Shown here in pieces: positions 21,911-62,192 of a stretch of 64,000 nt of DNA (its first letter is position 1; every line of letters begins with the position of its first letter). This stretch comes from Agrococcus sp. SL85 (GTDB lineage: Bacteria; Actinomycetota; Actinomycetes; Actinomycetales; Microbacteriaceae), in assembly GCF_026625845.1 (NCBI RefSeq), contig NZ_CP113066.1, forward strand, positions 372,001 through 436,000, written 5' to 3'. Both the position numbers and the translations under genes were made by a program. The notes under the pieces were generated by a model. It was not told the DNA's origin. It ran no database searches and was given only the letters and a program-made list of their open reading frames with translations.

Positions 21911-22604
21911 ATGCGCGAAGTCTTCCAGCAGGAGCTCGCCGAGGTGCAGGAGCGCCTCGTCGACATCGCCGGCCACGTCGTCGTCTCGATCAGCACGGCC
22001 GTGCAGGCGTTCGGGGAGTCGAACGTGCAGCTGGCCGAGCAGGTCATCGCGACCGACCCGCTCATCGACGACAAGGCCGCTGCGCTCGACGAGCTCGCGA
22101 TCGACATCATCGCCCGCCAGTCGCCGGTCGCCCGCGACCTCCGCATCGTCGTCTCGGCCCTGCGGATCTCCGCGTCGCTCGAGCGCATGGGCGACCTCGC
22201 GCGCCACATCGCGATGCTGGCGCGCTACCGCTTCCCGCTGCAGGTGGTGCCGGAGTCGCTCCAGCCGACGTTCGCCGAGATGGGCCGCCACGACATCGAG
22301 GTCGCGAAGCCTGCTCAAGGAGCTGCTCGAGACGCAGGACCTCACGATCGCGGCGCGCATCGAGGCCGCCGACGAGCACGTCGACCGCCTGCACCGCGAG
22401 GTCTTCGCGCAGGTGCTCGGCACGAGCTGGGAGGGCGCCGCGCACGCGACGGTCGACGCCACGCTCGCGAGCCGCTACCACGAGCGCTTCGCCGACCACG
22501 CGGTCGGCATCGCCCGCAAGGTGCAGTACCTCGCGACGGGCGACTGGGTGGGCAACGACTCGCACGCCGATCCCGAGCTCGAGCCGGTGCAGCCGGAGTC
22601 CTGA
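21911..22604 (+). CDS. phoU: Phosphate signalling protein PhoU, frame broken by AG loss
   Basis: PhoU couples the Pst transporter to the phosphate sensor kinase. The protein begins MREVFQQELAEVQERL and carries the first three-helix bundle motif (LRISASLERMGDLARHIA). At 22307-22312 the sequence reads AAGCCT and the frame is lost; restoring AG (AAGAGCCT) gives VAKSLLKELLETQDL and continues to the second bundle and a stop at 22604, total 231 residues, the normal PhoU length. Unrepaired, translation runs in a wrong frame past 22604. An RBS (AGCAGGAGCC) precedes the ATG. Divergent from senX3, as usual in Actinobacteria. I think the break is not biological: see the finding on RAGAGCCT. Confidence 0.9.
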
Positions 22605-22622
22605 GCGCAGCACCCCGGACAT

Positions 22623-22656
22623 CGAGAGGGCCCCCGCCTCGGCGGGGGCCCTCTCG
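22623..22656. terminator. Bidirectional terminator hairpin
   Basis: 16-bp complementary arms (CGAGAGGGCCCCCGCC and complement) almost touching at the loop, between convergent phoU and gpmA. Confidence 0.88.
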
Positions 22657-22668
22657 CGCGGTCGTGGG

Positions 22669-23418
22669 CTAGTGCTTCGCGCCCTGCGCCGCCACCGCCG
22701 CCGCACCGGCCGCCGCGGCCTCCGGGTCGAGGTACTCGCCGGGGCCGAGCGGCATGTTGTCGTCGCCGAGGCGGTAGACGAGCGGGATGCCCGTGGGGAT
22801 GTTGAGGCCGGCGATGTCGTCATCGGAGATGCCGTCGAGGTGCTTCACGAGCGCGCGCAGCGAGTTGCCGTGGGCGGTGACGAGCACGGTGCGGCCGGCG
22901 TCGAGGTCCTTGGCGATCGTCGACTCCCAGTAGGGCAGGAAGCGGTCGATGACGTCCTTGAGGCACTCGGTCGCGGGCACCTCGCCGTCGATGCCGGCGT
23001 AGCGCGGGTCGCCGGCCTGCGAGAACTCGTTGTCGTCGGCGATGACGGGCGGCGGCACGTCGAACGAGCGGCGCCACAGCATGAACTGCTCCTCGCCGTA
23101 CTGCGCGAGCGTCTCGGCCTTGTCCTTGCCCTGCAGGTCGCCGTAGTGGCGCTCGTTGAGGCGCCACGAGCGGGTCACCGGGATCCACGCGCGGTCGGCG
23201 GCGTCGAGCGCGATGTTCGCCGTCTGGATCGCGCGGGTGAGGAGCGAGGTGTAGAGCACGTCGGGCAGCAGGCCGCGCTCGGCGAGCAGCTCGCCGCCGC
23301 GGCGGGCCTCCTGCTCGCCCTGGGGCGTGAGCCGCACGTCGACCCATCCCGTGAAGAGGTTCTTCTCGTTCCACGTCGACTGGCCGTGGCGGAGCAGGAT
23401 GAGGGTGCGCTCGGTCAT
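22669..23418 (-). CDS. gpmA: 2,3-bisphosphoglycerate-dependent phosphoglycerate mutase
   Basis: 249 residues. Interconverts 3- and 2-phosphoglycerate in glycolysis through a phosphohistidine. The catalytic histidine is in [18 protein letters not shown] (H11); other motifs are [17 protein letters not shown], and the second catalytic histidine in [11 protein letters not shown]. The C-terminal Ala-rich extension (~228-249) is longer than in E. coli GpmA. TAGGCT lies six bases before the ATG. Adjacency to phoU/senX3/regX3 is the standard actinobacterial order. Confidence 0.96.
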
Positions 23419-23424
23419 GCTGCA

Positions 23425-23430
23425 AGCCTA
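23425..23430 (-). promoter_or_regulatory. Leaderless-type promoter of gpmA
   Basis: TAGGCT six bases (TGCAGC) before the ATG at 23418. Confidence 0.5.
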
Positions 23431-23492
23431 GCCAGGAAGCCATCGCGCGAGCGGCCGGATCGATGATGGCCGACGCGTGCCAGGATGTGCGG

Positions 23493-23858
23493 ATGGCCTC
23501 CGACCACCCCGTCCAGGCGCGCATCGGCGCCGTGTTCGTGCCCGTCTCCGACATCGCGCGGTCCGCCGCCTGGTACGGCGCGCTGCTCGGGGTGCCAGTG
23601 GGCACCACGAGCCACGAGGATCGCATCCACGACGTGCCGCTGGCGGGCGAGGCCGCGCTGATCCTCGACGCCCACCGGCCGGTGGCGGTCTCGTCGCAGC
23701 CGCTGTGCTTCCTGTGGTCGGACGACCTGGAGCGCGCCGCGGCGCTCGTCGAGGACCTCGGCGGCCGCCCCTCCGCGATCGAGGACATCGGCAGCGTGCG
23801 CACGATGCGCCTCGAGGACCCGGACGGCAACCTCCTCATGCTCTGCCAGCGCACCTGA
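23493..23858 (+). CDS. VOC/glyoxalase-fold protein
   Basis: 121 residues with one full vicinal-oxygen-chelate domain built of two beta-alpha-beta-beta-beta halves (VFVPVSDIARSAAWYGALLGV; LCFLWSDDLERAAALVEDLGG; MRLEDPDGNLLMLCQ). Members include glyoxalase I, fosfomycin and bleomycin resistance proteins and many uncharacterised enzymes; the reaction here cannot be told. A final E/D-P-D-G-N motif is present but the first metal ligands are unclear. The ATG at 23493 follows CAGGAT by six bases; two in-frame ATGs upstream are judged less likely. Followed directly by a methyltransferase gene on the same strand. Confidence 0.75.
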   Translation: MASDHPVQARIGAVFVPVSDIARSAAWYGALLGVPVGTTSHEDRIHDVPLAGEAALILDAHRPVAVSSQPLCFLWSDDLERAAALVEDLGGRPSAIEDIGSVRTMRLEDPDGNLLMLCQRT

Positions 23859-23892
23859 GCCGGCGGGGCCGGCGATCCGCCAGGATGGAGGG

Positions 23893-24730
23893 GTGGCGAA
23901 GCCGGTGGGTCGCATCACGCGAGGGACGACGGGCATCAACCGCCTGCGCCGCGTCGACCGCTGGATCGCCGCGCAGCCGGCCGCGCGCGCACCTGGCGCG
24001 CTCGTCGTCGACCTCGGCTACGGCGCGAGCGCCACGACGAGCCTCGAGCTCCACGAGCGGCTCTCGCGCCGCGCGCCGGGCGTCGAGGTGCTGGGCCTCG
24101 AGATCGACCCGGAGCGCGTCGCGCGCGCGACGGCAGAGCTCGCGGCCGCGCGCGAGGCGGGGCCCGAGCGCTACGGGCGGGCGATCGCGGCCGACGCGCG
24201 CGTCTCGTTCGCGCTCGGCGGCTTCGAGGTGCCCGCGCCCCGCCGCCCGCACGTGATCCGCGCCATGAACGTGCTGCGGCAGTACGACGAGCACGAGGTC
24301 GCCGGCCATTGGGCGACGATGCTCGGCCGACTCGCGCCCGGCGGCCTGCTCGTCGAGGGCACCTCGAACGAGGTCGGCCGCGTGTGCGCGTGGGTCGCGC
24401 TCGATGCCGACGGCCCCCGATCCCTCACGATCGCCCTCAAGGTCGACGAGCTCGGCACCGGGCCCTCCCCCGCGCCCTCGGTGGTGGCGGAGCGGCTGCC
24501 GAAGGCGCTCATCCACCGGAACGTGCCGGGCGAGCGCATCCACGCCCTGCTCGTCGACCTCGACCGCGCGTGGGCGAGCAACGCGCCGCTCGCCGACTTC
24601 GGCGCGACGCAGCGCTGGGTGGCGACGGCGCGGGCGCTCCGCGAGGGCGGCTGGCCGGTCGCCGACGGGCCGGCGCGCTGGCGGCTCGGCGAGCCTCACC
24701 GTGGCGTGGCCGGCGGTCGCGCCCGCCTGA
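23893..24730 (+). CDS. SAM-dependent methyltransferase-like protein, frame broken near 3' end
   Basis: Restored length 279 residues. Contains a Rossmann-type motif VVDLGYGASATTSLELHERL (~36-55) with ELH and GLEIDP after strand two, and RAMNVLRQYDEHEV in the motif IV region, so it looks like a class I methyltransferase; the substrate is unknown. At 24691-24696 GAGCCT interrupts the frame; restoring AG (GAGAGCCT) yields RWRLGESLTVAWPAVAPA and a stop at 24730. Without repair the frame reads on to 24984, 221 bases into the opposite-strand ygfZ-like gene, which is not credible. GTG start six bases after CAGGAT. Confidence 0.75.
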
Positions 24731-24763
24731 CGCGGCTCCCGCCGCTCGAGGGCGCCGCGGCCC

Positions 24764-25816
24764 TCAGGCCGTGGGCGCGCTCGGGCGGCGCACGGCGCCG
24801 AGCCGCGGGAGGCGCGGCGGGCGGTGCGCGTGGCCCGCGCTCGGCGGCACGAGCACCTGCTGCGCCGCGGCGACGTCGACGCCCTCCGCGGTGCGCACGA
24901 CGAGGTCGGCCTCCGCCGGGGCGCCGCGCTTCACGACGGCGAGCGCGATGGGCCCGAGCTCGTCGTGGATGGCGGCGGAGGTGATGCGGCCCACGAGTGC
25001 GCCCTCGTGCAGCACCTCGTCGCCCGCGGCGAGCTGCGCGCCCTCCGAGCCGTCGACGTGCAGCAGCACGATGCGGCGCGGCGGCGCCCCGAGGTTGTGC
25101 ACCTTCGCGACCGTCTCCTGGCCGCGGTAGCAGCCCTTCGACAGGTGCACGGCGGTCGTGAGCCAGTCGAGCTCGTGCGGGATGGTGCGCTCGTCGACCT
25201 CGGCGAGCGAGGGCCGCCCCGCCGCGATCCGCAGCGCGTCGACCGCGAGCGTGCCGACGAGCGAGGCGGGGTCGATCGCGGTCGCCTCCTCGGGGGCGAG
25301 CACCGCCTCCGACCACCGCCACGGCTCGCCCGTGGGCTCCCCGTAGCGCACGCCGCCCGGCGCGACCTCGGGCCAGCCGTCGACCCACGCGACCGGGCCC
25401 GCGGGCTCGGCGGCGCTGCCGACGACGACGACCTCGGGCCGCTCGATCTCGACCTGCTTGAAGAAGCGCATCCGCGTGAGCCACGCCTCGAGCGCATCGC
25501 CCGTGCCCGCGTCGACCAGGATCCAGAGCGCGCCCTCGGCGTCGCGGTGCAGGCGCATGGCGTGCTCGACGCGGCCCTCGGGCGAGAGCACGAGCGACTC
25601 GGCGGAGGCGCCGGGCGCGAGGCCCGCGATCGCCTGCGAGGTGATGGAGTCGAGCCACGGCAGCGCGTCGGGCCCCGTGAGCCGCAGCACGTCCCGCGGC
25701 AGCAGCACGGGCGCGCCCGCGCGGAGGCGCCGCTGCTCGGCGATGGGGCTGCCGACGTGCAGGGGCAGGCCGTCGGGCCCGACCACGGCGCCCGGGATGG
25801 CGGGCAGCGCGATCAC
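24764..25816 (-). CDS. Folate-binding YgfZ/GcvT-like protein
   Basis: 350 residues. Three-domain protein of the YgfZ/CAF17 family, which binds tetrahydrofolate and supports assembly or repair of certain Fe-S enzymes. The family signature K-G-C-Y-x-G-Q-E is present as SKGCYRGQETV (~234-241), and the N-terminal GcvT-like fold includes LTGPDALPWLDSITSQ. The C-terminus is Arg/Pro-rich. GTG start at 25816 overlaps the stop of the nitrobindin-like gene by four bases (GTGA), so both are one operon. Confidence 0.88.
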   Translation of the reverse strand: MIALPAIPGAVVGPDGLPLHVGSPIAEQRRLRAGAPVLLPRDVLRLTGPDALPWLDSITSQAIAGLAPGASAESLVLSPEGRVEHAMRLHRDAEGALWILVDAGTGDALEAWLTRMRFFKQVEIERPEVVVVGSAAEPAGPVAWVDGWPEVAPGGVRYGEPTGEPWRWSEAVLAPEEATAIDPASLVGTLAVDALRIAAGRPSLAEVDERTIPHELDWLTTAVHLSKGCYRGQETVAKVHNLGAPPRRIVLLHVDGSEGAQLAAGDEVLHEGALVGRITSAAIHDELGPIALAVVKRGAPAEADLVVRTAEGVDVAAAQQVLVPPSAGHAHRPPRLPRLGAVRRPSAPTA

Positions 25817-26430
25817 GCCTCGCCCGCCTCGTTCCGCGTGACGCGGGCCAGCCGCGCGGAGGCGTGGCTCTCGAGGCCCTGGCCGAGCGCGGCGAGGTCC
25901 CACGCCCACAGCAGGTGGTCGTCGACGAGGCCGAGCATGCGCGTGGAGGCCGCGTGGTCCTTCGCGCCCGCTCCCCGGAGCACCGCGTCGGTCGCGAGGT
26001 CGATGCGCGGGCCGGCGATCGTGCCGAGGTAGAGCTCGGCGACCCCCGCGGGGTGGGCGATGAGCGCCTGCAGGTCGAACGCGCCGTCGGGGCGGCGCAG
26101 CGTCTCGACGGCCTCCGCGGTGCCGTAGGCCGGCTCGCCCTCGGGCGGCAGCATGCCGGGGCCCGCGTCGCTCGGGCGCGACTCGCGCGCGAGGCGCCAG
26201 AAGCCCGTCTCGGCGGCGAGCGGCGTGAGCTCGTCGTCGAGCAGCCACGCGTAGGCCTCGTAGGTCAGGTACGGGTGCCCGTGGTGCGCGAATGCCACCC
26301 GCTGGGCGAACTCGTGCTCGATCGTGCGCCCGTGCACCGGGAACGAGAGCACGCCGGTGCCCTCCCAGTCGCCGATGAGCCACTGGAGCGGACCCAGCTC
26401 CGCGGGGAGCGTCGGGTCGATCTCGAGCAT
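25813..26430 (-). CDS. Nitrobindin/FABP-like heme-binding beta-barrel protein
   Basis: 205 residues. Ten-stranded beta-barrel of the THAP4/nitrobindin type, marked by the N-terminal GDWEGTG (consensus GxWxGxG), then EHEFAQRVAFAHHGHPYLTYEAYAW. Homologues bind ferric heme and can scavenge or isomerise peroxynitrite; the histidine that coordinates heme usually lies near the C-terminus (candidates in KDHAASTRML). Role here is by family only. Coupled to the downstream ygfZ-like gene, a pairing that hints at Fe-S or redox protection. Confidence 0.85.
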   Translation of the reverse strand: MLEIDPTLPAELGPLQWLIGDWEGTGVLSFPVHGRTIEHEFAQRVAFAHHGHPYLTYEAYAWLLDDELTPLAAETGFWRLARESRPSDAGPGMLPPEGEPAYGTAEAVETLRRPDGAFDLQALIAHPAGVAELYLGTIAGPRIDLATDAVLRGAGAKDHAASTRMLGLVDDHLLWAWDLAALGQGLESHASARLARVTRNEAGEA

Positions 26431-26433
26431 GGG

Positions 26434-26556
26434 CTAGCGCTGGCCGCGGAAGAGGTTGCGCAGCACGACGAACGAGACGCCGGCGATCGCCACCATCGCG
26501 AGGCCCAGGAGGCCGAGGAAGAAGATCTCGAGCGCGAGCAGGGGGATACCAGCCAT
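26434..26556 (-). CDS. Small membrane protein, 40 residues
   Basis: Forty codons: MAGIPLLALEIFFLGLLGLA, then a hydrophobic stretch to VSFVVL and a basic tail RNLFRGQR. One transmembrane helix with a positive cytoplasmic end is evident. Support for expression: a TAGGAT hexamer six bases before the ATG and a stop only three bases upstream of the nitrobindin-like start codon, so it is likely the first gene of the small-membrane-protein/nitrobindin/ygfZ operon. No family recognised. Too short for most gene callers. Confidence 0.65.
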   Translation of the reverse strand: MAGIPLLALEIFFLGLLGLAMVAIAGVSFVVLRNLFRGQR

Positions 26557-26562
26557 GCTCCG

Positions 26563-26568
26563 ATCCTA
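26563..26568 (-). promoter_or_regulatory. Leaderless-type promoter of 40-residue protein operon
   Basis: TAGGAT six bases (CGGAGC) before the ATG at 26556. Confidence 0.5.
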
Positions 26569-26606
26569 TCCCCCGCCGCCTGCGCGCCGCGCGGGACGGC
26601 GCGCGC

Positions 26607-26879
26607 TCACAGGTGCGTGAGCGGCACGAGGATCGCGGTCGCGAGCGCGAGGACCACGACCGAGCCGAGCACGGCCGCCGCGAGGCGGTCGACGAGCCCC
26701 GGCTCCGTCGGTCCGCCCAGCTGCACGGCGAACGCCGTGAGCGTGCAGACGCCCAGGACGATCGGCAGCCACACGATGCCGTCGGCGGGCTGCGCGATCC
26801 CGACGACGACCGCGCCGATGAGCGCGATCAGCCAGATCGGCCACACGCTCGCCCACTGCCACGACACGCGCACCATCAT
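26607..26879 (-). CDS. Small integral membrane protein
   Basis: 90 residues with three predicted transmembrane helices (~9-30 WPIWLIALIGAVVVG; ~36-55 WLPIVLGVCTLTAFAV; ~66-86 LAAAVLGSVVVLALATAI). No family recognised; unknown function. Two ATG codons stand in tandem at 26879 and 26876 and either may be used; the ribosome-binding site is weak. Divergent from glnR, which starts 85 bases away, so the two share a promoter region. Confidence 0.65.
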   Translation of the reverse strand: MMVRVSWQWASVWPIWLIALIGAVVVGIAQPADGIVWLPIVLGVCTLTAFAVQLGGPTEPGLVDRLAAAVLGSVVVLALATAILVPLTHL

Positions 26880-26938
26880 GGCGCATGCCGGCGCCCGCCG
26901 CCCGAGCGCGCGGTGTCAGACCTCTTCGCGCCTCCCCG

Positions 26939-26944
26939 TAGGAT
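26939..26944 (+). promoter_or_regulatory. Probable -10 of glnR-mshD
   Basis: TAGGAT, 19 bases before the glnR ATG; here a GGCAGGAGGG ribosome-binding site fits between, so this message has a short leader. Confidence 0.4.
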
Positions 26945-26963
26945 GTGCGGGGCAGGAGGGCGC

Positions 26964-27605
26964 ATGTCGCACATCGTGATCTTCACGCGCCGCGATCGCG
27001 GCGTCCTGCCGAGCCTGGAGCTGCTGGAGCACCGCGTGACCACGCTGCCGGGCACGGCAGAGGCGGTCGCGCACGCCCCCGACGCCGACATCATCGTCGT
27101 CGACGGCGCCGCCGAGCTCGCCGCGGCGAAGGCCATCTGCCGCCTGCTCGAGCACGACCCGACGCCCGTGGTGCTCGTGCTCGCCGAGGGCGGCTTCACG
27201 GCCGTCACGCCCGAGTGGGGCGTCACCGACATCGTGCTCGACGCGGCCGGGCCCGCCGAGCTCGAGGCGCGCCTCCGGCTCGCGGCGGCCGACGCCCGCG
27301 GCCGCGGCCCCATCGTCGCGAGCGGGCTCTCGATCGACGAGGCCAGCTACCAGGCGAAGGTCGACGGCAAGCCCATCGACCTCACCTTCAAGGAGTTCGA
27401 GCTGCTGCGCTTCCTCGCCTCGCACCCGGCGCGCGTCTTCACGCGCGAGCAGCTGCTCAGCGAGGTGTGGGGCTACGACTACTTCGGCGGCACCCGCACG
27501 GTCGACGTGCACGTGCGGCGCCTGCGCGCGAAGCTCGGCGACCTGGAGTCCGTGATCGGCACCGTGCGCGGCGTCGGCTACCGCTTCGAGCTGGTCGAGG
27601 CATGA
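26964..27605 (+). CDS. glnR: GlnR-type nitrogen response regulator
   Basis: 213 residues. Global nitrogen regulator of the OmpR fold that, in Streptomyces and mycobacteria, works without a cognate kinase. The receiver-like part is atypical ([18 protein letters not shown] instead of a full acidic pocket) and the winged helix is near the GlnR consensus ([51 protein letters not shown]). RBS GGAGGG is six bases before the ATG. The TGA stop overlaps the ATG of mshD (ATGA), so nitrogen regulator and mycothiol synthase are translationally coupled. Confidence 0.9.
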
Positions 27606-28406
27606 TCGACGCCGCCCGCGCCCTCGCCGCCGCCTGCCGGGCGGCGGACGGCACGCCGCCGTTCTCGGACCAGGCCCTCGTCGAGGCTCGCGCGCGGCGA
27701 TCGCCGCGCGGTCGGCGACGCGACGGCCCTCGCCGTGGTCGCCGACGGCGAGCGGGAGGCGGAGCTCGCCGTGCACCCGGACGCCCGCGGCCGCGGCCTC
27801 GGCCTCGCGCTCGCGCGCCGGCTGCTCGACGAGGCGCAGGGCCCCCTCGACCTCTGGGCGCACGGCGACCTGCCCGCCGCGACGGCGATCGCGGAGCGGC
27901 TCGGCTTGGCGCGGGTGCGCACCCTCCTGCAGCTGCGCGCCCCCGTGCCCGCCGCGCCGCACGGGCACGACGGCCCGCCCGCCGGGACGCGCGCCTTCGA
28001 GCCCGCGGACGCCGAGGCGCTGCTGGCCCTCAACGCCGCCGCCTTCGCGGACCACCCCGAGCAGGGCCGCATGAGCGCCGACGACCTCGCCGCCCGCCGC
28101 GCCGAGCCCTGGCACGACGACGCGAACCTCCTGGTGCTGCCGGGCGCCGACGGCCTCGACGCCTTCGCATGGGTGAAGCCCGACGACGCTGTCGCCGAGC
28201 TCTACGTGCTCGGCGTGCGGCCCGGCGCGCAGGGCGGCGGCATCGGCCGCCGGATGCTCGACGCCGCCCTCTGGCGCATGCGCGCCCTCGGGCACGGCAC
28301 CGCGCACCTGTACGTCGAGGGCGACAACGCGCCCGCGCTCGCGCTCTACGAGCGCACGGGCTTCGAGCGGTGGGCGATCGACGTGCGCTGGCGCCACGAG
28401 GGCTGA
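27602..28406 (+). CDS. mshD: Mycothiol synthase MshD, frame broken by AG/CT loss
   Basis: MshD transfers acetyl from acetyl-CoA to Cys-GlcN-Ins, the last step of mycothiol synthesis. Restored length 268 residues with two GNAT domains: the first with [20 protein letters not shown], the second with [23 protein letters not shown] and [19 protein letters not shown]. The frame breaks at 27683-27689 (GAGGCTC); restoring CT (GAGGCTCTC, reverse of GAGAGCCTC) gives [25 protein letters not shown] without other changes. Starts inside the glnR stop codon. The N-terminus is shorter than in mycobacterial MshD. Confidence 0.85.
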
Positions 28407-28471
28407 GCACCACGGAGGCTCGCGGCCGCCCGCGTCACGCGCCGTTCATCGTCGAGGGCCATGATGGGTGC

Positions 28472-31674: not shown

Positions 31675-31681
31675 CCGGGCT

Positions 31682-31834: not shown

Positions 31835-31837
31835 GGC

Positions 31838-51447: not shown

Positions 51448-54400
51448 CTAGGCGAAGTCGCGCGAGCGCGGGCTCGGCACGTCGAAGCGCTCGAGCTTGT
51501 CGGCGAGCACCGCGATGACCCCCTCGGGCGTGCGCTGCAGCATCCCCCGCACCACGAGCGCCGGCGAGTGCCGCGCCACCTGCCGCGCGTGCGCCCACAG
51601 GCCCTTCGAGACGATGACGTTGAGCATCCCCGTCTCGTCCTCGAGGTTGAGGAAGGTCACGCCCATCGCCGTGCGCGGCCGCTGCCGGTGCGTCACGATG
51701 CCGGCCGCCTGGATGCGCCTGCCGGGCTCGGCCTCCGCGAGCGCCGCGATCGGCAGCACGCCGCGCCCCTCGAGCATCGCCCGCGCATGCCGCACCGGAT
51801 GGTCGTCGGTCGCGACGCCCGTCGACCACACGTCGAGCGCCACCTGCTCCTCGGCCGTGAGCATCGGCAGCAGCGGCACCTCGAGCGTCACCTGCGTGCC
51901 CTCCAGCTGATCCTCGCGCTCGGTCGAGGCGGGGCCCGCGAGCCACAGCCCCTCGCGGCGGCCGACGCCGAGGCCGTCGAGCGCGCCCGCGGTCGCGAGC
52001 GCCTCGAGCTCGCCGCGATCGAGCCTCCGCGCGGCGCGCGAGGTCGTGGATGTCGCGCAGCGGCCGCGCCTCGCGCGCCGCCACGATCCGCTCCGCCGCC
52101 GGGCGGCCGAGCCCGGCGATGCCCGAGAGCCCCTGCCGCACCGCGAGCCCCGCGTCGCGGCGGTGCCGGTCGCGCGCCCGCCGCGACTCGCGCGCCTCCT
52201 TCGGCACGGGCGGCTGCACGCGCTCGAGGCACGCGAGCGCGCCCGCACGGCGCTCGCCGTGCGGCTCGAGCCCCGCCTCGACGCCCGAGCGCACGACATC
52301 GGGCCGCAGCGTCTCGACCCCGTGCCGCGCGGCGTCGGCCACGAGCGAGGCGGGGCTCCAGAAGCCCATCGGCTGGCTGCGCAGCAGCCCGGCGAGGAAC
52401 GCCGCCGGGTAGTGCAGCTTCAGCCACGAGGAGGCGTACACGAGCTTCGCGAAGGCGAGCGAGTGCGACTCCGCGAAGCCGAAGCCCGCGAAGGCCTCGA
52501 TCTTGCGGTAGATCGACTCGCCCACGTCGGGGGCGATGCCGTTGGCCGCCATGCCCTCGAAGAGCTTCGCCTTGAGCGCCTCGATGCGCTCCTTCGAGCG
52601 CTTCGAGCCGATCGCGCGCCGCAGCTGGTCGGCCTCCCCCGCGTCGAAGCCGCCCACGGCGACCGACATCTGCATGAGCTGCTCCTGGAACAGCGGCACG
52701 CCGAGCGTGCGCTCGAGCACGGGCACGAGCAGCGGGTGCGCGTACGTGATCGGCTCGGTGCCCGCGCGCCGGCGCAGGTACGGGTGCACGGCGTCGCCCT
52801 GGATGGGGCCGGGGCGGATGAGCGCGATCTCGACCACGAGGTCGTAGAAGCAGCGCGGCTTGAGCCGCGGCAGCGTCGCCATCTGCGCCCGCGACTCCAC
52901 CTGGAAGACGCCCACGGCATCCCCCTCGCAGAGCATGTCGTAGACCCCGGCCTCCTCGGCCGGCATCGTCGCGAGGCTCCACCGCTCCCCCGTGTGCTCG
53001 GCCGCGAGGTCGAGCGTGTGCGAGAGCGCGCCGAGCATGCCGAGGCCCAGCAGGTCGAACTTCACGAGCCCCATCCACTCGCAGTCGTCCTTGTCCCACT
53101 GCAGCACCGTGCGCCCCTCCATGCGAGCGGGCTCGATGGGGCAGACGCTGCCGACGGGCTCCTCGGTGAGCACCATGCCGCCCGAGTGGATGCCGAGGTG
53201 CCGCGGCGCGTGCAGCAGCTCGCCCGCGAGCTCGGTCACCGCCTCCGGGATGCCGGCGACGTCGGGCCGCGAGTACGACTCCACCGACTTCGACCACGCG
53301 TTCTGCTGGCCGACCGCGTAGCCGAGCGCCTTCGCGGCATCGCGCACCGCCGACTTCGGCCGGTAGGTGATGACGTTGGCCACCTGCGCCGCGTTCCGGC
53401 GGCCGTAGCGCTCGTAGACGTGCTGGATGACCTCCTCGCGCCGGCCCGCGTCGAAGTCGATGTCGATGTCGGGCTCCTCCTCGCGCATCATCGAGATGAA
53501 GCGCTCGAACGGCAGCCGGTAGAGGATCGGGTCGACGGCGGTGATGCCGAGGATGAAGCAGACGGCGCTCGCCACGGCGCTGCCGCGGCCCTGGCAGAGG
53601 ATGCCGCGCGAGTGCGCGAACTCGGCGATCTCGAACACGATGAGGAAGTAGCCGGCGAAGCCCTTCTGCTCGATGAGGCCGAGCTCGTGGTCGAGGCGGG
53701 CGCGCACGTGGTCCGGGGCGCGGCCGTCGGGCGTCGGGTAGGCGCGCGGCAGCCGCTCGGCGACGAGCGAGCGCAGCCACGACATCTGCGTGTGCCCCTC
53801 CGGCACCTCGGTGGCGGGCAGCCGCGGGGAGGCGGCGCGGAGGTCGAAGGCGAGGCTCGCGGCCGAGCGCGGCCGCGGTGGCGACGGCGCCGGGGAAGGC
53901 GGCGAAGCGGCGCGCCATGACGGCGCCGGAGCGCAGCGACGGCACGCCGCCCGCGGGCAGCCAGGCGTCGAGGCTCGTCGATGGAGCGGCGCGCGCGCAC
54001 CGCTGCGACGGCGTCGCCGAGGTGCTGGCGGCGGGGCGATGCGATGTGCGCGTTCGTCGTGGCGATCACGGGCAGCCGGAGGTCGGCGCCGAGCCCGGCG
54101 AGGGCGCGGTTGCGCTCGTGATCGCGCGGGTCGCCGACGTCGCTGAGCTCGACGACGACGCGGTCTCGGCCGAAGAGCGCGCAGAGGCGGTCGAGGCTCG
54201 GTGCGCGCGGCCTCGGCGCCGCCCTGCTCGAGCGCCTGCCGCACGCCGCCCTTCCGGCAGCCCGAGAGCACCATCCACTCGCCGCGCGCCGTCTCGGCGA
54301 GCCGCTCGAGCTCGAAGACGGGGCGGCCCTTCTCGCCCGGGGCGCCGAGGCGGTCGGTGGTGAGGTAGCCGTCGGTGAGCGCGGTGGCGAGGTTCGTGTA

Positions 54401-54826: not shown

Positions 54827-54870
54827 CGCCCCTCCTCTCGTCTGCTCCTGCTCCTGGCCTCAGCGGGCGG

Positions 54871-56433
54871 TCACGTGTAGCAGCCCTCGGCGAGCCAGGC
54901 GCCGTCGGCGTGCAGCAGCACCCAGGCATCGCCCTCGCCGTCGAGCAGCTGGATGCGGTGCACGACGTCGCCGAGGTCGCGGCGCCGGATGGGCCACGGC
55001 CCCGCCCACGCCACCACGCGGCGGCGGCCCGCCGCGGGCGGCACGAACCAGGCGGGCGCGCCCTCGCGCACGTCGAGCGCCTCGGCCTCCACCTGCGCGC
55101 CCGCCCCGTCGACGAGCCGCACCGCGAGCGGCGGCCGGAACACGGTCGTCGGCCTCGGGGCGGGCAGCGCGCCCGGCCACGGCCCCTGCTGCACGGCGGG
55201 CGCGGCGTCGCCCCAGGGCGTGAGCACGCCGCGCTCGGCGAGCAGCCGCCCGCCGCCGGGCGCGGCCGTGAGCACCGCCTCGCGCCCGAGCATGCCCTGC
55301 AGCCGCTCGAGCGCGTGCTTCGCGCGGTCGTCGATGCCGCCCCCGCCCCACAGGCCCGGCATGTGCTCGGCGTCGGGGTCGAGCCGCTCGGGCAGCGCCT
55401 GCACCTCGACGAGCGCCGAGCCGAGGTCGCTCTCGGCCAGCTGCCACCGCATCCGGTCGACGATGTCGGGAGCGCGCAGGAACCCCGGCTGCCGCCAGAG
55501 CCGCTCGCTCACGCGCCCCTCCTCGGCGCGCAGCACGATGCGGATCTCGCTGCACACGAGCCGCTGCTCGGCCAGCTGCCGCACGAAGCGCTCCACGGGC
55601 TCGCGCACCGCGAGCGCCAGCTCGGCCGTGCCCTCGAGCCCGGGCTCGAACGCGAGGCGCAGCACGCGCTCCTCGCCGAGCCCCGGATCCTCCACCCGAC
55701 GGTCGTCGTCGCCGCGCGCGCGGGCGAGCGCGACGAGCCCGGCCTCGCCGAAGCGGTCGCGCACGCTGTCGTCGGGGAGGCGCGCGAAGCCGCCGAGGGT
55801 GTGCACGCCGAGGCGGTGGAGCATGCCCGCGAGCTCGCCCTCGCCCAGCACCCCCACGGGCAGGGCGGCGAGGAACGCGGCACTGCCGCCCGTCGGCACG
55901 ATCGCGCCCGCCTCGGCGGCGAGTTCTGCGGCGAAGCGGTCGTCGGCCACGCCCACGACCGCCGTCAGACCCATGGGCGCGAGCGCGCCGCGCACGGCGG
56001 CGATCGCGCCGGCCTCGGAGCCGTAGAAGCGGCTCGCGCCGCGCATGCGGAAGGCGAGGCCGCCCTCGCCGATGGGCTGCGCGGCCGGCACGACGGCGTG
56101 CACGGCGCGCAGCACCCGCTCGAAGGCGAGCGACTCCCCCACAGGATCCGCGGGCGCGAGCGCGAGCATGGGCGCGGCCGCCTGCGCGTCGCGGATGCGC
56201 ATGCCGGGACGCACGCCCTCGGCTCGAGCGCCCTCGTCGCACGCGACGATGCGCATGGCGTGCACGACGGCCCCGGGCGAGCCCTGCTCGCCCCCGGCGG
56301 GGAGGGCGCCGGTCTGGCGCGCCACGACGACGGGCCAGTCGGGCACGCGGAGCACGCCGATGCGGCCACGGACGCGGCTCGGCGCGCGCTGCGCCGCCTG
56401 CCCGTCCGGGCCTCCGGTCTGCTCGATCCCCAC
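54871..56433 (-). CDS. imuB: ImuB, inactive Y-family polymerase-like protein
   Basis: 520 residues. ImuB has a Y-family polymerase fold but lacks the catalytic acidic residues; it bridges DnaE2 to the beta clamp. Here the palm region that would hold the first catalytic Asp reads IGVLRVPDWPVVVA, and the fold continues with RPGMRIRDAQAAAP, GIDDRAKHAL. GTG start at 56433, ten bases from a perfect LexA box. Upstream gene of the imuB-dnaE2 operon. imuA' is not beside it as usual, but 4 kb away behind its own LexA box. Confidence 0.9.
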   Translation of the reverse strand: MGIEQTGGPDGQAAQRAPSRVRGRIGVLRVPDWPVVVARQTGALPAGGEQGSPGAVVHAMRIVACDEGARAEGVRPGMRIRDAQAAAPMLALAPADPVGESLAFERVLRAVHAVVPAAQPIGEGGLAFRMRGASRFYGSEAGAIAAVRGALAPMGLTAVVGVADDRFAAELAAEAGAIVPTGGSAAFLAALPVGVLGEGELAGMLHRLGVHTLGGFARLPDDSVRDRFGEAGLVALARARGDDDRRVEDPGLGEERVLRLAFEPGLEGTAELALAVREPVERFVRQLAEQRLVCSEIRIVLRAEEGRVSERLWRQPGFLRAPDIVDRMRWQLAESDLGSALVEVQALPERLDPDAEHMPGLWGGGGIDDRAKHALERLQGMLGREAVLTAAPGGGRLLAERGVLTPWGDAAPAVQQGPWPGALPAPRPTTVFRPPLAVRLVDGAGAQVEAEALDVREGAPAWFVPPAAGRRRVVAWAGPWPIRRRDLGDVVHRIQLLDGEGDAWVLLHADGAWLAEGCYT

Positions 56434-56442
56434 GGTCCATGA

Positions 56443-56458
56443 TCGAACATACGTTCGA
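56443..56458 (-). promoter_or_regulatory. LexA box of imuB-dnaE2
   Basis: TCGAACATACGTTCGA, a perfect match to the actinobacterial SOS box TCGAACNNNNGTTCGA. Confidence 0.92.
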
Positions 56459-56503
56459 ACGCCGTCAAGCCGCGTCGGCGCGTCGCGGCGTCGCCGGGCA
56501 TGC

Positions 56504-56540
56504 GGAGGTGCGGGACGCGGCTCGCGCGCCCCGCACCTCC
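56504..56540 (-). terminator. Terminator hairpin after chaplin-like gene
   Basis: 11-bp stem (GGAGGTGCGGG and complement) with a 15-base loop. It separates the surface-protein gene from the imuB promoter. Confidence 0.75.
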
Positions 56541-56547
56541 CGATCCG

Positions 56548-59094
56548 TCACCGCGTCATGCGAGCGCGGCCTCCCACGAGCAGCAGGACCGCGCCGAGCA
56601 GGAGCAGGGCGAGCGCAGGCAGCGCGAGCCCCGTCACCGAGGCGCCGGTCTGCGGGAGCATGCCGGCAGCCTCCTCCTGCACCGACAGGTCGGTCTTGCC
56701 GCTGTCACCGGGCTGGCCCGGGTCACCGGGCACCATCGGGTCCGTCGGGTCCGTCGGGTCCGTCGGGTCCGTCGGGTCCGTCGGGTCCGTCGGGTCCGTC
56801 GGGTCCGTCGGGTCCGTCGGGTCCGTCGGGTCGACCGGGTCCGTCGGGTCCGTCGGGTCGACCGGGTCCGTCGGGTCCGTCGGGTCGACCGGGTCCGTCG
56901 GGCCGACCGGGTCCGTCGGGTCCGTCGGGTCGACCGGGTCCGTCGGGTCCGTCGGGTCGACCGGGTCCGTCGGGTCCGTCGGGCCGGCGGCCGTGGCGCA
57001 GTCGCCCGTCGAGGCGTCGCCGAGCACGCCGAGCGCGTTGCAGCCGATCGCCACGGGGAGCTCGACGCCGATGCCGCCGATGATCCCGCCGAGGAGGCCG
57101 TCGCCGACCTCGCCCGCGGTGCCGTCACCGGCGCCGGGAGCGGAGGCCGACGTGTCCGACCCCTCGGTCGTGGCGTCGCCGCCCACGGCCACGGCGTTGC
57201 CGCCGACGGCCACGGGGAGCGCAGCGCCGACCTCGGCCACGATGCCGCCGAGCAGCCCGTCGTCGCCCGAGGCCGAACCGGCCTCGCCAGCGGTCGAGCC
57301 CGAGCCCGTCATGGCACCCTCGCTCACAGCGTCGCCACCGACCGCAACGGCGTTGCCGCCGACCGCGACCGGAGCCGCAGCCTCGACATCCGCCAGCACG
57401 CCACCGAGCAGGCCGTCATCGCCCGAGGCCGAACCGGCCTCGCCGGCCGTCGAGCCCGAGCCCGTCGTGGCACCCTCGCTCGACGCGTCACCCAGCACGC
57501 CCACGGCGTTGCCGCCGACCGCCACCGGAGCAGCAGCCTCGACATCCGCCAGCACGCCACCGAGCAGGCCCTCGTCGCCCGAGGCCGAACCGGCCTCGCC
57601 AGCGGTCGAGCCCGAGCCCGTCATGGCACCCTCGCTCACAGCGTCGCCACCGACCGCAACGGCGTTGCCGCCGACCGCGACCGGAGCCGCAGCCTCGACA
57701 TCCGCCAGCACGCCACCGAGCAGGCCGTCATCGCCCGAGGCCGAACCGGCCTCGCCGGCCGTCGAGCCCGAGCCCGTCGTGGCACCCTCGCTCGACGCGT
57801 CACCCAGCACGCCCACGGCGTTGCCGCCGACCGCCACCGGAGCAGCAGCCTCGACATCCGCCAGCACGCCACCGAGCAGGCCCTCGTCGCCCGAGGCCGA
57901 ACCGGCCTCGCCAGCGGTCGAGCCCGAGCCCGTCATGGCACCCTCGCTCACAGCGTCGCCACCGACCGCAACGGCGTTGCCGCCGACCGCGACCGGAGCC
58001 GCAGCCTCGACATCCGCCAGCACGCCACCGAGCAGGCCGTCATCGCCCGAGGCCGAACCGGCCTCGCCGGCCGTCGAGCCCGAGCCCGTCGTGGCACCCT
58101 CGCTCGACGCGTCACCCAGCACGCCCACGGCGTTGCCGCCGACCGCCACCGGAGCAGCAGCCTCGACATCCGCCAGCACGCCACCGAGCAGGCCCTCGTC
58201 GCCCGAGGCCGAACCGGCCTCGCCAGCGGTCGAGCCCGAGCCCGTCATGGCACCCTCGCTCACAGCGTCGCCACCGACCGCAACGGCGTTGCCGCCGACC
58301 GCGACCGGAGCAGCAGCCGAAGCGTCCGCGACGGTGCCGGACAGCACGCCGTCGTCACCGGAGGTCGACGCGCCCGATCCCGCGCCAGTCGTCGCCGAGC
58401 CCGTCGTGGCACCCTCGCTCGACGCGTCACCCAGCACGCCCACGGCGTTGCCGCCGACCGCCACCGGAGCCGCGACGTCGCCGAGCACCTGACCGCCCGA
58501 GCGCAGCCCGTCATCGCCCGACGTCGAGGTCGCCGCCTCGCCCGAGTCGCTCGAGGCCGTGGCCTCCGAGCCCTCCGACGACGCGTCGCCGGCGACGCCG
58601 ATCGCGTTGCCGGACACCGTCACCGGTGCCGCGACGTCGACGACGCCCAGGATGCCCGAGGCGATGCCGTCGTCGCCCGAGGCCGTCGAGCCGGAGCCCG
58701 ACGAGCCGGTCGACGCCGACGACGCCGACGAGCCCTCGCTCGTCGCGTCGCCGAGCACGCCCAGCGAGTTGCCCGAGACGGTCACCGGAGCGGCGACCGA
58801 GACGAGCGCGGTGCTGCCCGAGAGCAGGCCGCCGATGCCGGACGTCGAGACGTCGGCCGACGGCTGCTGCGCCGAGCTGTTCGATGCGGCATCGGTCGAC
58901 TCGGCGTCGCCGGCGATCCCGATGGCGTTGCCGCCGATCGTCACCGGCGCCGAGATCGACACCACCGCCTGGTTGCCCGACACGAGGCCTTCCGCGCCAT
59001 CGGTGTCGGCTGCACTGGCGATCCCAGTGCCTGCGGCCCAGAGGCCGCCGGCGAGCGCTGTCGTGCACAGCACTCGCATCGCGAGCTTTCGCAT
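56548..59094 (-). CDS. LPXTG surface protein with chaplin-like repeats
   Basis: 848 residues. Signal peptide (MRKLAMRVLCTTALAGGLWA, cleaved near ASA-AD), then about twelve modules of ~52 residues, each with a chaplin-like core such as APVAVGGNAVGVLGDASSEG, a long D-P-T/D-P-V repeat stalk, and a sortase signal LPQTG followed by a hydrophobic helix and RARMTR. Chaplins of Streptomyces form amyloid surface layers, but their paired cysteines are missing here. Most modules come from a near-identical 312-bp DNA repeat. Good RBS (AAGGAGAG) before the ATG. Probable adhesin or surface-coat protein anchored by sortase. Confidence 0.85.
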   Translation of the reverse strand: MRKLAMRVLCTTALAGGLWAAGTGIASAADTDGAEGLVSGNQAVVSISAPVTIGGNAIGIAGDAESTDAASNSSAQQPSADVSTSGIGGLLSGSTALVSVAAPVTVSGNSLGVLGDATSEGSSASSASTGSSGSGSTASGDDGIASGILGVVDVAAPVTVSGNAIGVAGDASSEGSEATASSDSGEAATSTSGDDGLRSGGQVLGDVAAPVAVGGNAVGVLGDASSEGATTGSATTGAGSGASTSGDDGVLSGTVADASAAAPVAVGGNAVAVGGDAVSEGAMTGSGSTAGEAGSASGDEGLLGGVLADVEAAAPVAVGGNAVGVLGDASSEGATTGSGSTAGEAGSASGDDGLLGGVLADVEAAAPVAVGGNAVAVGGDAVSEGAMTGSGSTAGEAGSASGDEGLLGGVLADVEAAAPVAVGGNAVGVLGDASSEGATTGSGSTAGEAGSASGDDGLLGGVLADVEAAAPVAVGGNAVAVGGDAVSEGAMTGSGSTAGEAGSASGDEGLLGGVLADVEAAAPVAVGGNAVGVLGDASSEGATTGSGSTAGEAGSASGDDGLLGGVLADVEAAAPVAVGGNAVAVGGDAVSEGAMTGSGSTAGEAGSASGDDGLLGGIVAEVGAALPVAVGGNAVAVGGDATTEGSDTSASAPGAGDGTAGEVGDGLLGGIIGGIGVELPVAIGCNALGVLGDASTGDCATAAGPTDPTDPVDPTDPTDPVDPTDPTDPVGPTDPVDPTDPTDPVDPTDPTDPVDPTDPTDPTDPTDPTDPTDPTDPTDPTDPTDPMVPGDPGQPGDSGKTDLSVQEEAAGMLPQTGASVTGLALPALALLLLGAVLLLVGGRARMTR
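56738..56985 (-). repeat. 9-bp repeat array encoding the D-P-T/V stalk
   Basis: About 27 tandem GTCGGGTCC-type units (plus-strand reading), with regular GACCGG variants that give Val for Thr. Copy number is likely to vary. Confidence 0.9.
57265..58316 (-). repeat. 312-bp near-identical tandem repeats in the surface-protein gene
   Basis: About 3.4 copies of a 312-bp unit (104 codons, two alternating modules). Starts near 57265, 57577, 57889 and 58201. Several hundred bases are identical between copies, so recombination or assembly collapse is possible. Confidence 0.9.
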
Positions 59095-59118
59095 CGCTCT
59101 CTCCTTCTGATCGATCCA

Positions 59119-59139
59119 GCCGCCCCGCTCCGGGGCGGC
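59119..59139 (-). terminator. Small hairpin between the two surface-protein genes
   Basis: 9-bp stem GCCGCCCCG and complement with loop CTC, after the Pro/Val-rich gene; a possible terminator. Confidence 0.6.
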
Positions 59140-59173
59140 GAAGCATGCTGCGCCGAGCGCAGCCGCGGATCGG

Positions 59174-60292
59174 TCAGTCGGGGCTGGAGTCGTGCTCCTG
59201 GATCGCGGAGTCGGGGGTGCGCTCGTGCTCGATCGCACCGGTCGCGCCGCCCGCGAGCGCGGGCAGGACAACGGTCTGGGTGTCGGCCGGGGTCGTCGCC
59301 GAGGCGGCGCCCGTCGCACCGGCGGAGCCGGACGGCGCCGCGGGCGAGGCGCCGCGGTCGAGGGACAGGAGCCCGGAGATCGTGGGGGCTGCCGACGTCG
59401 CCGCATCGCCGTCGACGGTCGAGGCGGGCGCGCGATCGGTCATCGCGGCGGCGGCCGGCGCGGCAGCGACGGCGTCGCCCGCGTCAGCGGCTCCGCCATC
59501 CTTCGCGCCCTGCACATCGCTCTGCGCATCGTCCGTCGCGTCCGCAGCACCGGGCTCGTCGGCGACGGGCGGCGCGGCGATCGGCGCACCGGGGATGGGC
59601 GCCTCGGGCAGCGGCACCTCGGGCAGCGGGAGCTGCGGCACGCTGCCCGATCCCGGCGGCACGACGGCGTCCACCACGGGGTCGACGACCTCCTCGACCA
59701 CCGGGTCGACAATGCCCGCCACCGGCGCCTCGCCCAGCACGTCGTCGACGACCGGGAGCGCGCCGACCGCGTCGTCCACCACGTCGACCACGGGATCGAC
59801 GACGTCGACGACCAGGTCGCGCACGGGCGTCACGACGGGCTCGAGCGGCGCTGCGACGGGCCGGACGACCTCGACGACGGGCGTCACGATCGGCGCCGCC
59901 ACGGGCTCGACGACGGGCCGCAAGGCCTCCACCGCGGCGACGGGCGCCTCCACGGCGCGCTCGACCACGGGAGCGATCGGCTCGACCACGGGAGCGGCGA
60001 CGGGCTCGACGATCGCGTCGACCGCGCGGGTCGCGGGCGCGAGGGCGTCGGTGATCGACGACGCCTGCGTCGCGACCTCCTGGACGGGCGCCGCGAGGGG
60101 CTCGGTCACGTCGCCGACGAGGCCGCCGACCTCCTGCACCACGCCGCCGAGCAGGCCGCGGCCGTCGTCCTCCGCCGCGGTGGCGGCACCGCCGCCCACG
60201 AGGAGCGAGAGCCCGACGGCGCCGATCGAGGCGGCGCCGGCGACCACGGCGAGGCGGAGCATGCGGGCTCGCACGCCTGCGCGCTGCTCCAT
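59174..60292 (-). CDS. Secreted Pro/Val-rich surface protein
   Basis: 372 residues from ATG 60292 (an in-frame ATG at 60310 also has a fair ribosome-binding site). Signal peptide ending GGGAATAAE, then a region dominated by repeated P-V-V/V-V-D-P patterns (EPVAAPVVEPIAPVVE, VVDVVDPVVDVVDD, VVEEVVDPVVDAVV), then a Pro-rich linker (PLPEVPLPEAPIPGAPI) and an Ala/Thr/Gly-rich tail with no LPXTG or helix. No family recognised. Same strand and next to the chaplin-like gene, so possibly part of the same surface layer. Unrelated in function to the flanking SOS genes as far as the sequence shows. Confidence 0.7.
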   Translation of the reverse strand: MEQRAGVRARMLRLAVVAGAASIGAVGLSLLVGGGAATAAEDDGRGLLGGVVQEVGGLVGDVTEPLAAPVQEVATQASSITDALAPATRAVDAIVEPVAAPVVEPIAPVVERAVEAPVAAVEALRPVVEPVAAPIVTPVVEVVRPVAAPLEPVVTPVRDLVVDVVDPVVDVVDDAVGALPVVDDVLGEAPVAGIVDPVVEEVVDPVVDAVVPPGSGSVPQLPLPEVPLPEAPIPGAPIAAPPVADEPGAADATDDAQSDVQGAKDGGAADAGDAVAAAPAAAAMTDRAPASTVDGDAATSAAPTISGLLSLDRGASPAAPSGSAGATGAASATTPADTQTVVLPALAGGATGAIEHERTPDSAIQEHDSSPD

Positions 60293-60416
60293 GGCTCTCA
60301 CCCCCGTCATCGTGACCTGCCGGTTCGTACCCAGGACTGTACGGACGTCCAAGACGGACGACAAGTGGACTCAGCGTCCTGCCAGCGGCTTCGGATGGCG
60401 CGCCCGGCGTCGCGCG

Positions 60417-61082
60417 TCAGGCGACGAGCTCCTGCGCCGCGCCCGGCAACGGCTCGATGCCCGTGATCGGGATGCGCGCCAGCCGCGGCGCGCCGCCCGT
60501 CGCGGCCTCCACGACGAGGCTGCCCGCGGCGATGCGCCCGTCGCCCGCCGCGAGCCCCTCCCACTCGGCGCGCACGCTGCGCACGACGGTCGCGGCGCCC
60601 TGCCAGGGGCCCGCGACGAGCAGGGTCGACGACGCCTGCCGCAGCCGAGCGGCGAGCCTCGCCGCGTCGGTCGGGGCGACCCTGCCGGGCGAGGCGGCGA
60701 GCACCACGGGCATCGCCTCGGCGAGGCTCGCCACGACGTCGAGCCACGCCCGACCGGGGTGGGGCACGAGCGCGACCCGCTCGATCGGCACCCCGAGGTC
60801 GCGCGCCGCCTCGATGCCGAGGTCGGGCATGCCCACGATCGCGCCCCACGCACCCCCGGGGAGCGCGGCCCCCATGCACGCGAGGGCGAGGCTGCGCGAC
60901 TCGATGCTGTGCACGGCGCCTGCGCGGAGGCTCTGCACGACATCGCCGAGGCCGGCGGGCACGGGCGCCGCGCGCTCGGGCACCGCCTGCGCCTGCTGCA
61001 TGCCGCGCAGGCGCTCGCGCAGCGCCTCGACCGTCGCCGTGCGGTCGTCGCCCGTGCGTCGCTCGAGCCTCGTCGCAGCCAT
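60417..61082 (-). CDS. ImuA'-like SOS mutagenesis protein
   Basis: 221 residues. RecA-like fold without a good Walker A, as expected for actinobacterial ImuA', which pairs with ImuB and DnaE2 in induced mutagenesis. Recognisable parts: SIESRSLALACMGAALPGGAWGAIVGMPDLGIEAARDLG (seen as VGMPDLGIEAARDLG and the following LERVALVPHPG-like strand), and LLVAGPWQGAATVVRS. A perfect LexA box lies 16 bases before the ATG. Normally first in imuA'-imuB-dnaE2; here separated from imuB by two surface-protein genes. Confidence 0.78.
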   Translation of the reverse strand: MAATRLERRTGDDRTATVEALRERLRGMQQAQAVPERAAPVPAGLGDVVQSLRAGAVHSIESRSLALACMGAALPGGAWGAIVGMPDLGIEAARDLGVPIERVALVPHPGRAWLDVVASLAEAMPVVLAASPGRVAPTDAARLAARLRQASSTLLVAGPWQGAATVVRSVRAEWEGLAAGDGRIAAGSLVVEAATGGAPRLARIPITGIEPLPGAAQELVA

Positions 61083-61098
61083 CCTCACCCCTTCATCT

Positions 61099-61114
61099 TC
61101 GAACGTGTGTTCGA
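61099..61114 (-). promoter_or_regulatory. LexA box of imuA'
   Basis: TCGAACGTGTGTTCGA, perfect match to TCGAACNNNNGTTCGA, 17 bases before the imuA' start codon. Confidence 0.92.
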
Positions 61115-61195
61115 ACGCGTCAACAGCCTGCGGCGTGTCCGCATCGTCCCCGCGTGGGAGGATGAGCCGTCCCGCGCAGCGACGAGGAGGCCCCG

Positions 61196-62192
61196 ATGGC
61201 GACGACCGCCGACGACGCGAGCGTCGCACGAGCCGCTGACGCGGCGTCCGCGCCCGACCCCCGCCAGGAGGCCGTCCGCGGCCCGGTCCTCTGCGTGACC
61301 ACGAACCCCGCGATCGACATCACGTACACGATCGACGAGCTGCGGCCCGGCACGAGCCACCGAGTGCCCACGGGGCTCGCACGCGCGGGCGGCAAGGGCG
61401 TGAACGTCGCGCGGGTGCTGCACCAGCGCGGCGAGGAGGCGCTCGTCGTCGCCCCCGTCGGCGGTCCCGTGCGCGACATCTTCGTGCACGACCTCGACCG
61501 CTCCCGGATCCCCCATCGACTCGTCGAGGTCGACGCGCCCACGCGCCGCACGACCGCGATCGTCACGCCCGCGGGCACCACGAACCTCAACGAGCGCGGC
61601 CAGGCGATCGGCGCGGACGAGTGGTCGCGCGTGCTCGACGCGCTGCGCGAGGAGGCCGGCCGCGCGCGCCTCGTGATCTGCTCCGGCTCGCTCCCCCCGC
61701 AGACCCCGGAGGGCCTGTGCACGTCGATCGTGCGCATCGCCGCCGAGGCCGGCGCCCACGTCATCGTCGACGTCGGCGGCGAGCAGCTGCGGCAGGCGGT
61801 CGCCTCGGGCGCGCGCGCCGCGAAGCCCAACCGCCACGAGCTGCTCGAGGCCATGGGCGGCAGCGATCCGCTCGACGCCGCGCGCCGCCTCGCGGCCTCC
61901 GGGACCGGCACCGTGTTCGCCTCCCTCGACGTCGAGGGCATGCTCGCGGTGCTGCCCGACGGCCGCGCCTGGCACGCGATGCTCGACGGCGTGCTCGAGG
62001 GCAACCCGACCGGCGCCGGCGACGCCGCGGTCGCCGCGCTCGCGCAGGCGCTGTGCGAGGGCGTGCCGCTCGAGGAGCAGGCTCGCGCGCGCGACGGCGT
62101 GGTCGGCGGCGGCCGTGCTGGCGCCGCAGGCGGGCTCGATCGGCGATCCCGAGGAGCTGCGCGGGCGCATCCGCATCCGCCCGATCGGCTGA
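61196..62192 (+). CDS. 1-Phosphofructokinase (PfkB family), frame broken by AG/CT loss
   Basis: PfkB-type sugar kinase, best match 1-phosphofructokinase or the related tagatose-6-phosphate kinase. Restored length 332 residues. N-terminal signature GGKGVNVARVLHQRG, DVGGEQLRQA, AKPNRHELLE, and the catalytic D276 in NPTGAGDAAVAAL. At 62079-62083 (CAGGCTC) the frame is lost; restoring CT (AGGCTCTC) gives EEQALARATAWSAAAVLAPQAG and a stop at 62192. Unrepaired, it reads to 62266, four bases from the next gene. RBS GAGGAGG precedes the ATG. A ~25-residue N-terminal extension is unusual. No PTS fructose genes adjoin in the window. Confidence 0.85.

What the first reader, a model, noticed from the sequence alone, without database searches (positions are those of the whole stretch)
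22307..62083. Eight frame breaks share one cause: RAGAGCCT reads as RAGCCT
phoU (22307), methyltransferase (24691), mshD (27684), dnaE2 (54194, 53971, 53853, 52022) and 1-phosphofructokinase (62079) each lose frame at GAGCCT/AAGCCT or the reverse AGGCTY. At all eight, putting AG (or CT) back so the site reads RAGAGCCT restores a continuous protein of normal length. Near relatives are intact: GAGAGCC followed by A, C or G (for example 43803, 46555, 52123, 62933) and CAGAGCCT (opposite strand at 60928). I found no intact RAGAGCCT in 64 kb. The most economical reading is a motif-specific 2-base loss in base calling, as happens in long-read data at a modified motif. It would mean the strain has a DNA modification recognising this motif, otherwise unrecorded. 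A biological process that deletes AG from this motif is the exciting but less likely alternative.
Basis: partly seen in the sequence, partly recalled or inferred. Interest (0 to 1): 0.85.

Follow-up and report, generated by a model that had tools for sequence, protein, structure and literature searches.

The report
AGCT sequencing errors mimic broken genes
The eight apparently broken genes are most likely not broken: this genome's assembled sequence carries a spurious extra letter at about two percent of its AGCT sites, perhaps because that motif is chemically marked and was misread by the sequencer.

Summary
The eight frame breaks are in the assembled sequence and share one cause, but not the one proposed. 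At all eight, at least one Agrococcus congener reads AGCT where the window has one extra base (AGCCT or AGGCT). AG has not been lost from RAGAGCCT: one intact copy lies in the window and 92 in the genome, within the range of seven congeners. In a 444-kb stretch, 22 distinct sites carry an extra base inside a congener's AGCT against 1045 intact; the added letter is C or G in 22 of 22. The reverse test gave 0 against all eight congeners compared. No wider motif was found. Affected genes otherwise stay conserved. This is best read as a motif-specific base-calling artefact. Modification is inferred only: the genome has two C5-cytosine methyltransferase loci of unknown specificity, and such genes are common in the genus. 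No reads or sequencing records were available.

The parts
22307..22312 (+). frame break in phoU; one base longer than congeners here
   Evidence: (+1 against G008, G006, G002), (G017 reads AGCT here; G008 reads ACGCT; pieces 98.6% and 84.7% identical to G008 in two frames); G008 ORF is PhoU
   Evidence: G001, G006, G008, G014, G017 read AGCT; only the part before the break recovered; no family
27684..27689 (-). frame break in mshD; AGGCT on the + strand where congeners read AGCT
   Evidence: G001, G008, G014, G017; TIGR03448 on the G008 ORF
52021..52026 (+). fourth frame break in dnaE2 (gene on the - strand, about 54826 to 51447 by the frames)
   Evidence: AGCT in G008 only; an unbroken piece of the gene matches error-prone DNA polymerase NF004225, 876.5 bits, below the full-length cut-off of 939
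53853..53858 (-). third frame break in dnaE2
   Evidence: +1 against all five congeners; AGCT in G002, G008, G012, G017
53971..53976 (-). second frame break in dnaE2
   Evidence: +1 against all five congeners; AGCT in all eight congeners
54194..54199 (-). first frame break in dnaE2
   Evidence: AGCT in G008 only
62079..62084 (-). frame break in a pfkB-family hexose kinase (1-phosphofructokinase type); AGGCT on the + strand where congeners read AGCT
   Evidence: G001, G002, G006, G008, G014, G017; TIGR03168 above its cut-off, 1-PFK equivalog TIGR03828 below its own, PF00294

Best explanation
The breaks are assembly errors. In this Agrococcus genome about 2% of AGCT sites were written with one base too many (AGCCT or AGGCT). 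Shown: the extra base, its concentration at AGCT, its absence in the tested stretches of eight congeners, and its occurrence inside conserved genes. Inferred: that the assembly rests on long reads without adequate short-read correction, that a resident enzyme modifies AGCT, and that the base-caller or polisher sometimes reads the modified site as one base longer.
For: 8 of 8 window sites are isolated +1 against G008, and at each of the 8 at least one congener reads AGCT. In the 444-kb stretch (307,295 bases of it aligned to G008), 22 of 40 isolated +1 events lie at AGCCT/AGGCT, 18 of those 22 with AGCT in the G008 letters printed beside them. Extra base inside G008's AGCT: 22 of 1004 aligned instances, reverse 0 of 982, Fisher P 4e-7; other 4-mers 82 of 172,617, reverse 55 of 172,589 (a site in overlapping stretches can count twice). 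Against the others: G001 11/630, G009 1/255, G017 9/598, G012 2/57, G002 3/129, G006 3/136, G014 5/142, and 0 in every reverse test; G008, G001 and G009 among themselves and G008 with the other five also gave 0. Pooled over all eight: 22 distinct sites against 1045 intact; 12 read AGCCT and 10 AGGCT, none with A or T added, as a palindromic cause predicts. Pieces of the broken genes tested remain 64-99% identical to G008. Published passages: in Neisseria nanopore assemblies 77 of 103 wrong indels lay at or beside methylated positions (PMC12506013); motif-specific errors tied to modification (PMC10687267).
Against: No reads or sequencing records were available. Documented modification errors are mostly mismatches (PMC10687267), and in PMC12506013 all indels but one were missing bases; here a base is gained. 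Only about 2% of AGCT sites are hit and no context within 12 bases separates them. Three breaks lie within 342 bp of dnaE2 with one intact AGCT between them, denser than a uniform rate predicts. Neither methyltransferase's specificity is known, PF00145 also matches in 7 of 11 congeners, and one of the two genes here appears broken in the same way. With looser matching, one search found the motif as a gain in the reverse direction twice, both outside coding sequence and not at an AGCT of this genome. It also classed 15 other frame-changing indels and 6 other gains as coding. The CGAGCCTC to CGAGCTC ratio is high here (0.099; 9 of 11 congeners 0.058-0.074) but G003 (0.106) and G009 (0.096) are about as high.
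Confidence: 0.75

Rival explanations
1. Same artefact, but not caused by modification: a quirk of the base-caller or polisher at AGCT whatever its methylation state.
For: Low rate (about 2%) and no proof of an AGCT enzyme.
Against: None of eight congeners shows it, among them the single-contig assemblies G001, G002, G006, G012 and G017; how these were sequenced is unknown.
Confidence: 0.18
2. Real mutations: a process such as cutting at AGCT followed by inaccurate joining adds one base.
For: The pattern is motif-specific and strand-symmetric.
Against: Only C or G is added (22 of 22), and genes hit show no decay beside the break. A living cell with a hundred or more such breaks (extrapolated) is hard to credit.
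Confidence: 0.04
3. One reading: AG lost from RAGAGCCT, by base calling or biology.
For: It restores the same frame arithmetically.
Against: 92 intact RAGAGCCT in the genome, within the congeners' range; congeners are one base shorter at the sites, not two longer.
Confidence: 0.01
4. Programmed frameshifting at AGCCT.
For: All eight breaks share a short sequence.
Against: dnaE2 would need four shifts; congeners have no break at these sites; unrelated genes are hit.
Confidence: 0.01

Closest known systems
Modification-mediated nanopore errors in Listeria (PMC10687267, abstract start and passages seen)
   Same: Strain-specific errors at a short motif, linked there to modification and removed by amplifying the DNA
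   Different: There mismatches at GCAGC or GCTGG; here one-base gains at AGCT, and no reads to test
Methylation-related indels in nanopore assemblies of Neisseria (PMC12506013, abstract start and passages seen)
   Same: Indels at or next to methylated positions, strongly strain-dependent
   Different: There a missing base in all but one indel; here an extra one
AGCT methylation, for example m4C at AGCT in a thaumarchaeal genome (PMC6329791, passages seen); AluI-type systems (recalled)
   Same: Same recognition sequence
   Different: No AGCT enzyme identified here; the candidates are of the C5-cytosine family

Membership tests
Modification-mediated long-read error | Errors concentrated at a short motif | tested here: met
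   AGCT 22 of 1004 against 82 of 172,617 for other 4-mers
Modification-mediated long-read error | Specific to this genome among relatives | tested here: met
   0 in the reverse test against all eight congeners, in the stretches fetched
Modification-mediated long-read error | Vanishes in amplified DNA or short reads | not testable with these tools
   no reads held
Modification-mediated long-read error | Genome encodes an enzyme that modifies the motif | tested here: inconclusive
   two PF00145 loci, no PF01555 or PF02384 match; other methyltransferase families not searched; specificity unknown; PF00145 also in 7 of 11 congeners
Modification-mediated long-read error | Assembly made from nanopore reads | not testable with these tools
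   single 2,705,363-base contig, unnamed
   92 copies; seven congeners have 83-167; somewhat scarcer than in those against the reversed-pattern control
   8 of 8 are one base longer than G008

The most novel reading that the evidence does not exclude
The strain modifies AGCT throughout its chromosome with an unrecorded C5-cytosine (or other) mark, and that mark produces one-base gains rather than the usual mismatches or missing bases; the assembly is then indirect evidence of an uncharacterised AGCT methyltransferase in Agrococcus.
Probability: 0.5. Interest if true: 0.35.

Novelty: not a real feature. Interest (0 to 1): 0.25.

Why it matters
Genes in this record, among them dnaE2, mshD, phoU and radA, would be annotated as broken although the organism very probably has them whole. 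By extrapolation a hundred to two hundred or so sites in the genome are affected. The comparison used here (how often a relative's AGCT holds one extra base, and the reverse) is a simple way to spot such assemblies, and may hint at a modified motif from an assembly alone.

Tried and rejected
Rejected: RAGAGCCT deletion; a longer motif around AGCT (best two-position rule gives a rate of 0.029, random draws 0.021-0.033; GAGCT slightly over-represented, P 0.05). Uninformative: GAGCCTG counts and the CGAGCCTC to CGAGCTC ratio. G009, which has the closest relative of one methyltransferase, was tested for the same extra base and showed none (0 of 254 and 0 of 250). Led nowhere: a first query in a frame that is not dnaE2; a tblastn census that timed out; a plasmid search for the methyltransferase, which gave generic names in the 15 of 4342 records listed. 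Of the neighbours of one methyltransferase scanned none hit a nuclease family. Strain identity: the genome is 2,705,363 bp, unlike nanopore-sequenced Agrococcus sp. SCSIO 52902 (2,693,362 bp; PMC9323897, passages). The nanopore R10.4.1 genome of A. phoenicis 1P02AA (PMC12067966, passages) could be it, but its size was not seen. PMC11898673 (passages) reports methylation-related typing errors in a GC-rich species and did not mention indels. Paper searches aimed at AGCT, nanopore errors or methylation motifs listed no report of this error: 0 papers; 1 each; 12 of 13 listed; 12 of 121 listed. They cover only the open library.

They show that phoU also has a congener reading AGCT (G017), that the added letter is always C or G, and the distinct-site count. 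One search's 22 sites and one search's 22 sites share 19 (25 together): 315958, 469180 and 496983 (the alr-tsaE break) have no congener reading AGCT, and 323245, 451653 and 616097 are new.

Full report
What was checked. The window is G000:C1:372001-436000 of a single 2,705,363-base contig. The five best named relatives of its dnaE2 piece are Agrococcus (78-88% identical), environmental actinobacteria (recalled). The piece matches error-prone DNA polymerase. All eight coordinates carry RAGCCT, among 38 in the window. One intact RAGAGCCT is present. The genome has 92 and seven congeners have 83 to 167, so the motif is not missing, though against the reversed pattern it is somewhat scarcer here than in those congeners.

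What the breaks are. In dnaE2 the reading frame steps 2, 0, 1, 2 at the first three breaks: each is a gain of one base or a loss of two. Alignment to relatives separates these. Under a strict filter, 26 site-by-congener comparisons with five congeners all show the window one base longer, 16 of them by my count with AGCT in the congener. Under the filter all 8 of 8 sites are single-base gains against G008, which reads AGCT at 7 of the 8; at phoU it reads ACGCT. Over eight congeners every one of the eight sites has at least one that reads AGCT.

How widespread. I compared 444 kb of the genome around the window with the matching part of G008 (307,295 bases aligned). There were 82 isolated frame-changing indels; 40 were single-base gains, and 22 of the 40 lie at AGCCT or AGGCT. 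By substitution periodicity, 43 of the 82 fall in coding sequence: 28 gains, 22 of them at these motifs, and 15 other indels (whose looser matching counts 24 motif gains in all). The non-motif events were not classified one by one. A direct test asked how often G008's AGCT holds an extra base in this genome: 19 of 992 or 22 of 1004 with looser filters. The reverse was 0 of 982. Other 4-mers gave 82 of 172,617, which includes 4-mers overlapping the same sites, and 55 of 172,589 in reverse. Against seven further congeners the genome again showed the extra base (G001 11/630, G009 1/255, G017 9/598, G012 2/57, G002 3/129, G006 3/136, G014 5/142) and the reverse was always 0. These comparisons overlap; pooled, they give 22 distinct sites with the extra base and 1045 without. 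The congener pairings that were run gave 0.

Context. The added letter is always C or G: 12 AGCCT and 10 AGGCT. No base within 12 positions separates hit from intact sites beyond chance. 1759 intact AGCT lie in the 444 kb, about 10,700 in the genome by extrapolation, so at 1-2% some 130 to 220 sites are affected.

Why an artefact. Of 20 G008 reading frames taken at the sites (frames chosen by codon-position composition), 17 matched a family: phoU, mshD, pfkB type, prpD, radA, hutG-like, alr-tsaE, glycosyltransferases and others. In eight genes tested, matches above 55% identity were kept; six show pieces in two frames meeting near the break, 64-99% identical to G008; hutG and the 24691 gene gave one piece only. 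One is an alr-tsaE frame split near residue 270, though there no congener compared reads AGCT. That alr and tsaE are usually essential is general knowledge, and a second copy was not sought. Selection would hardly tolerate so many fresh breaks.

Why perhaps modification. Nanopore base-callers misread unfamiliar modified bases at strain-specific motifs (PMC10687267, passages). In Neisseria 77 of 103 wrong indels lay at or next to methylated positions, and almost all methylation-related mismatches there were put down to 5mC (PMC12506013, passages); those indels were missing bases in all but one case, unlike here. This genome holds two C5-methyltransferase loci. One, at 1,131,159-1,132,416, has a PD-Lambda-5_A-like neighbour; its two halves lie in different frames with AGGCT between them, while relatives in four congeners and two genomes of the same order match both halves. 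The other is a 642-residue frame at 1,437,740-1,439,449. G008 has none, but 7 of 11 congeners have a PF00145 match, so presence alone says little. No PF01555 or PF02384 match was found in this genome. AGCT methylation exists elsewhere, for example m4C in a thaumarchaeal genome (PMC6329791, passages). That either enzyme recognises AGCT is a guess.

Verdict. The breaks should not be read as biology.

Noticed in passing
L175 (G000:C1:1126001-1138000), gene at 1131159-1132416 on the minus strand: A C5-cytosine methyltransferase (PF00145) whose match is split over two frames with an AGGCT at 1131536, near a PD-Lambda-5_A-like gene; 43-54% identical to enzymes of four congeners and two genomes of the same order.
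   Followed up: partly
L176 (G000:C1:1437740-1439449): A second C5-methyltransferase in a 642-residue frame; no match among the ten other methyltransferase loci compared.
   Followed up: no
window 53853-54199: Three of the breaks within 342 bp of dnaE2 with one intact AGCT between them; possibly locally poor coverage.
   Followed up: no
L150 (G008) 17948-19999 and G000:C1 near 496985: Alanine racemase and TsaE lie in one open frame in G008; the same frame is broken in the window's genome at AGGCT.
   Followed up: partly
L039: A contig of a record named Vibrio cholerae 35D encodes an actinobacterial-type dnaE2 (65% identical), so the record looks mislabelled or contaminated.
   Followed up: no
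window 41806: A 16-base stretch present in G002 is absent here.
   Followed up: no
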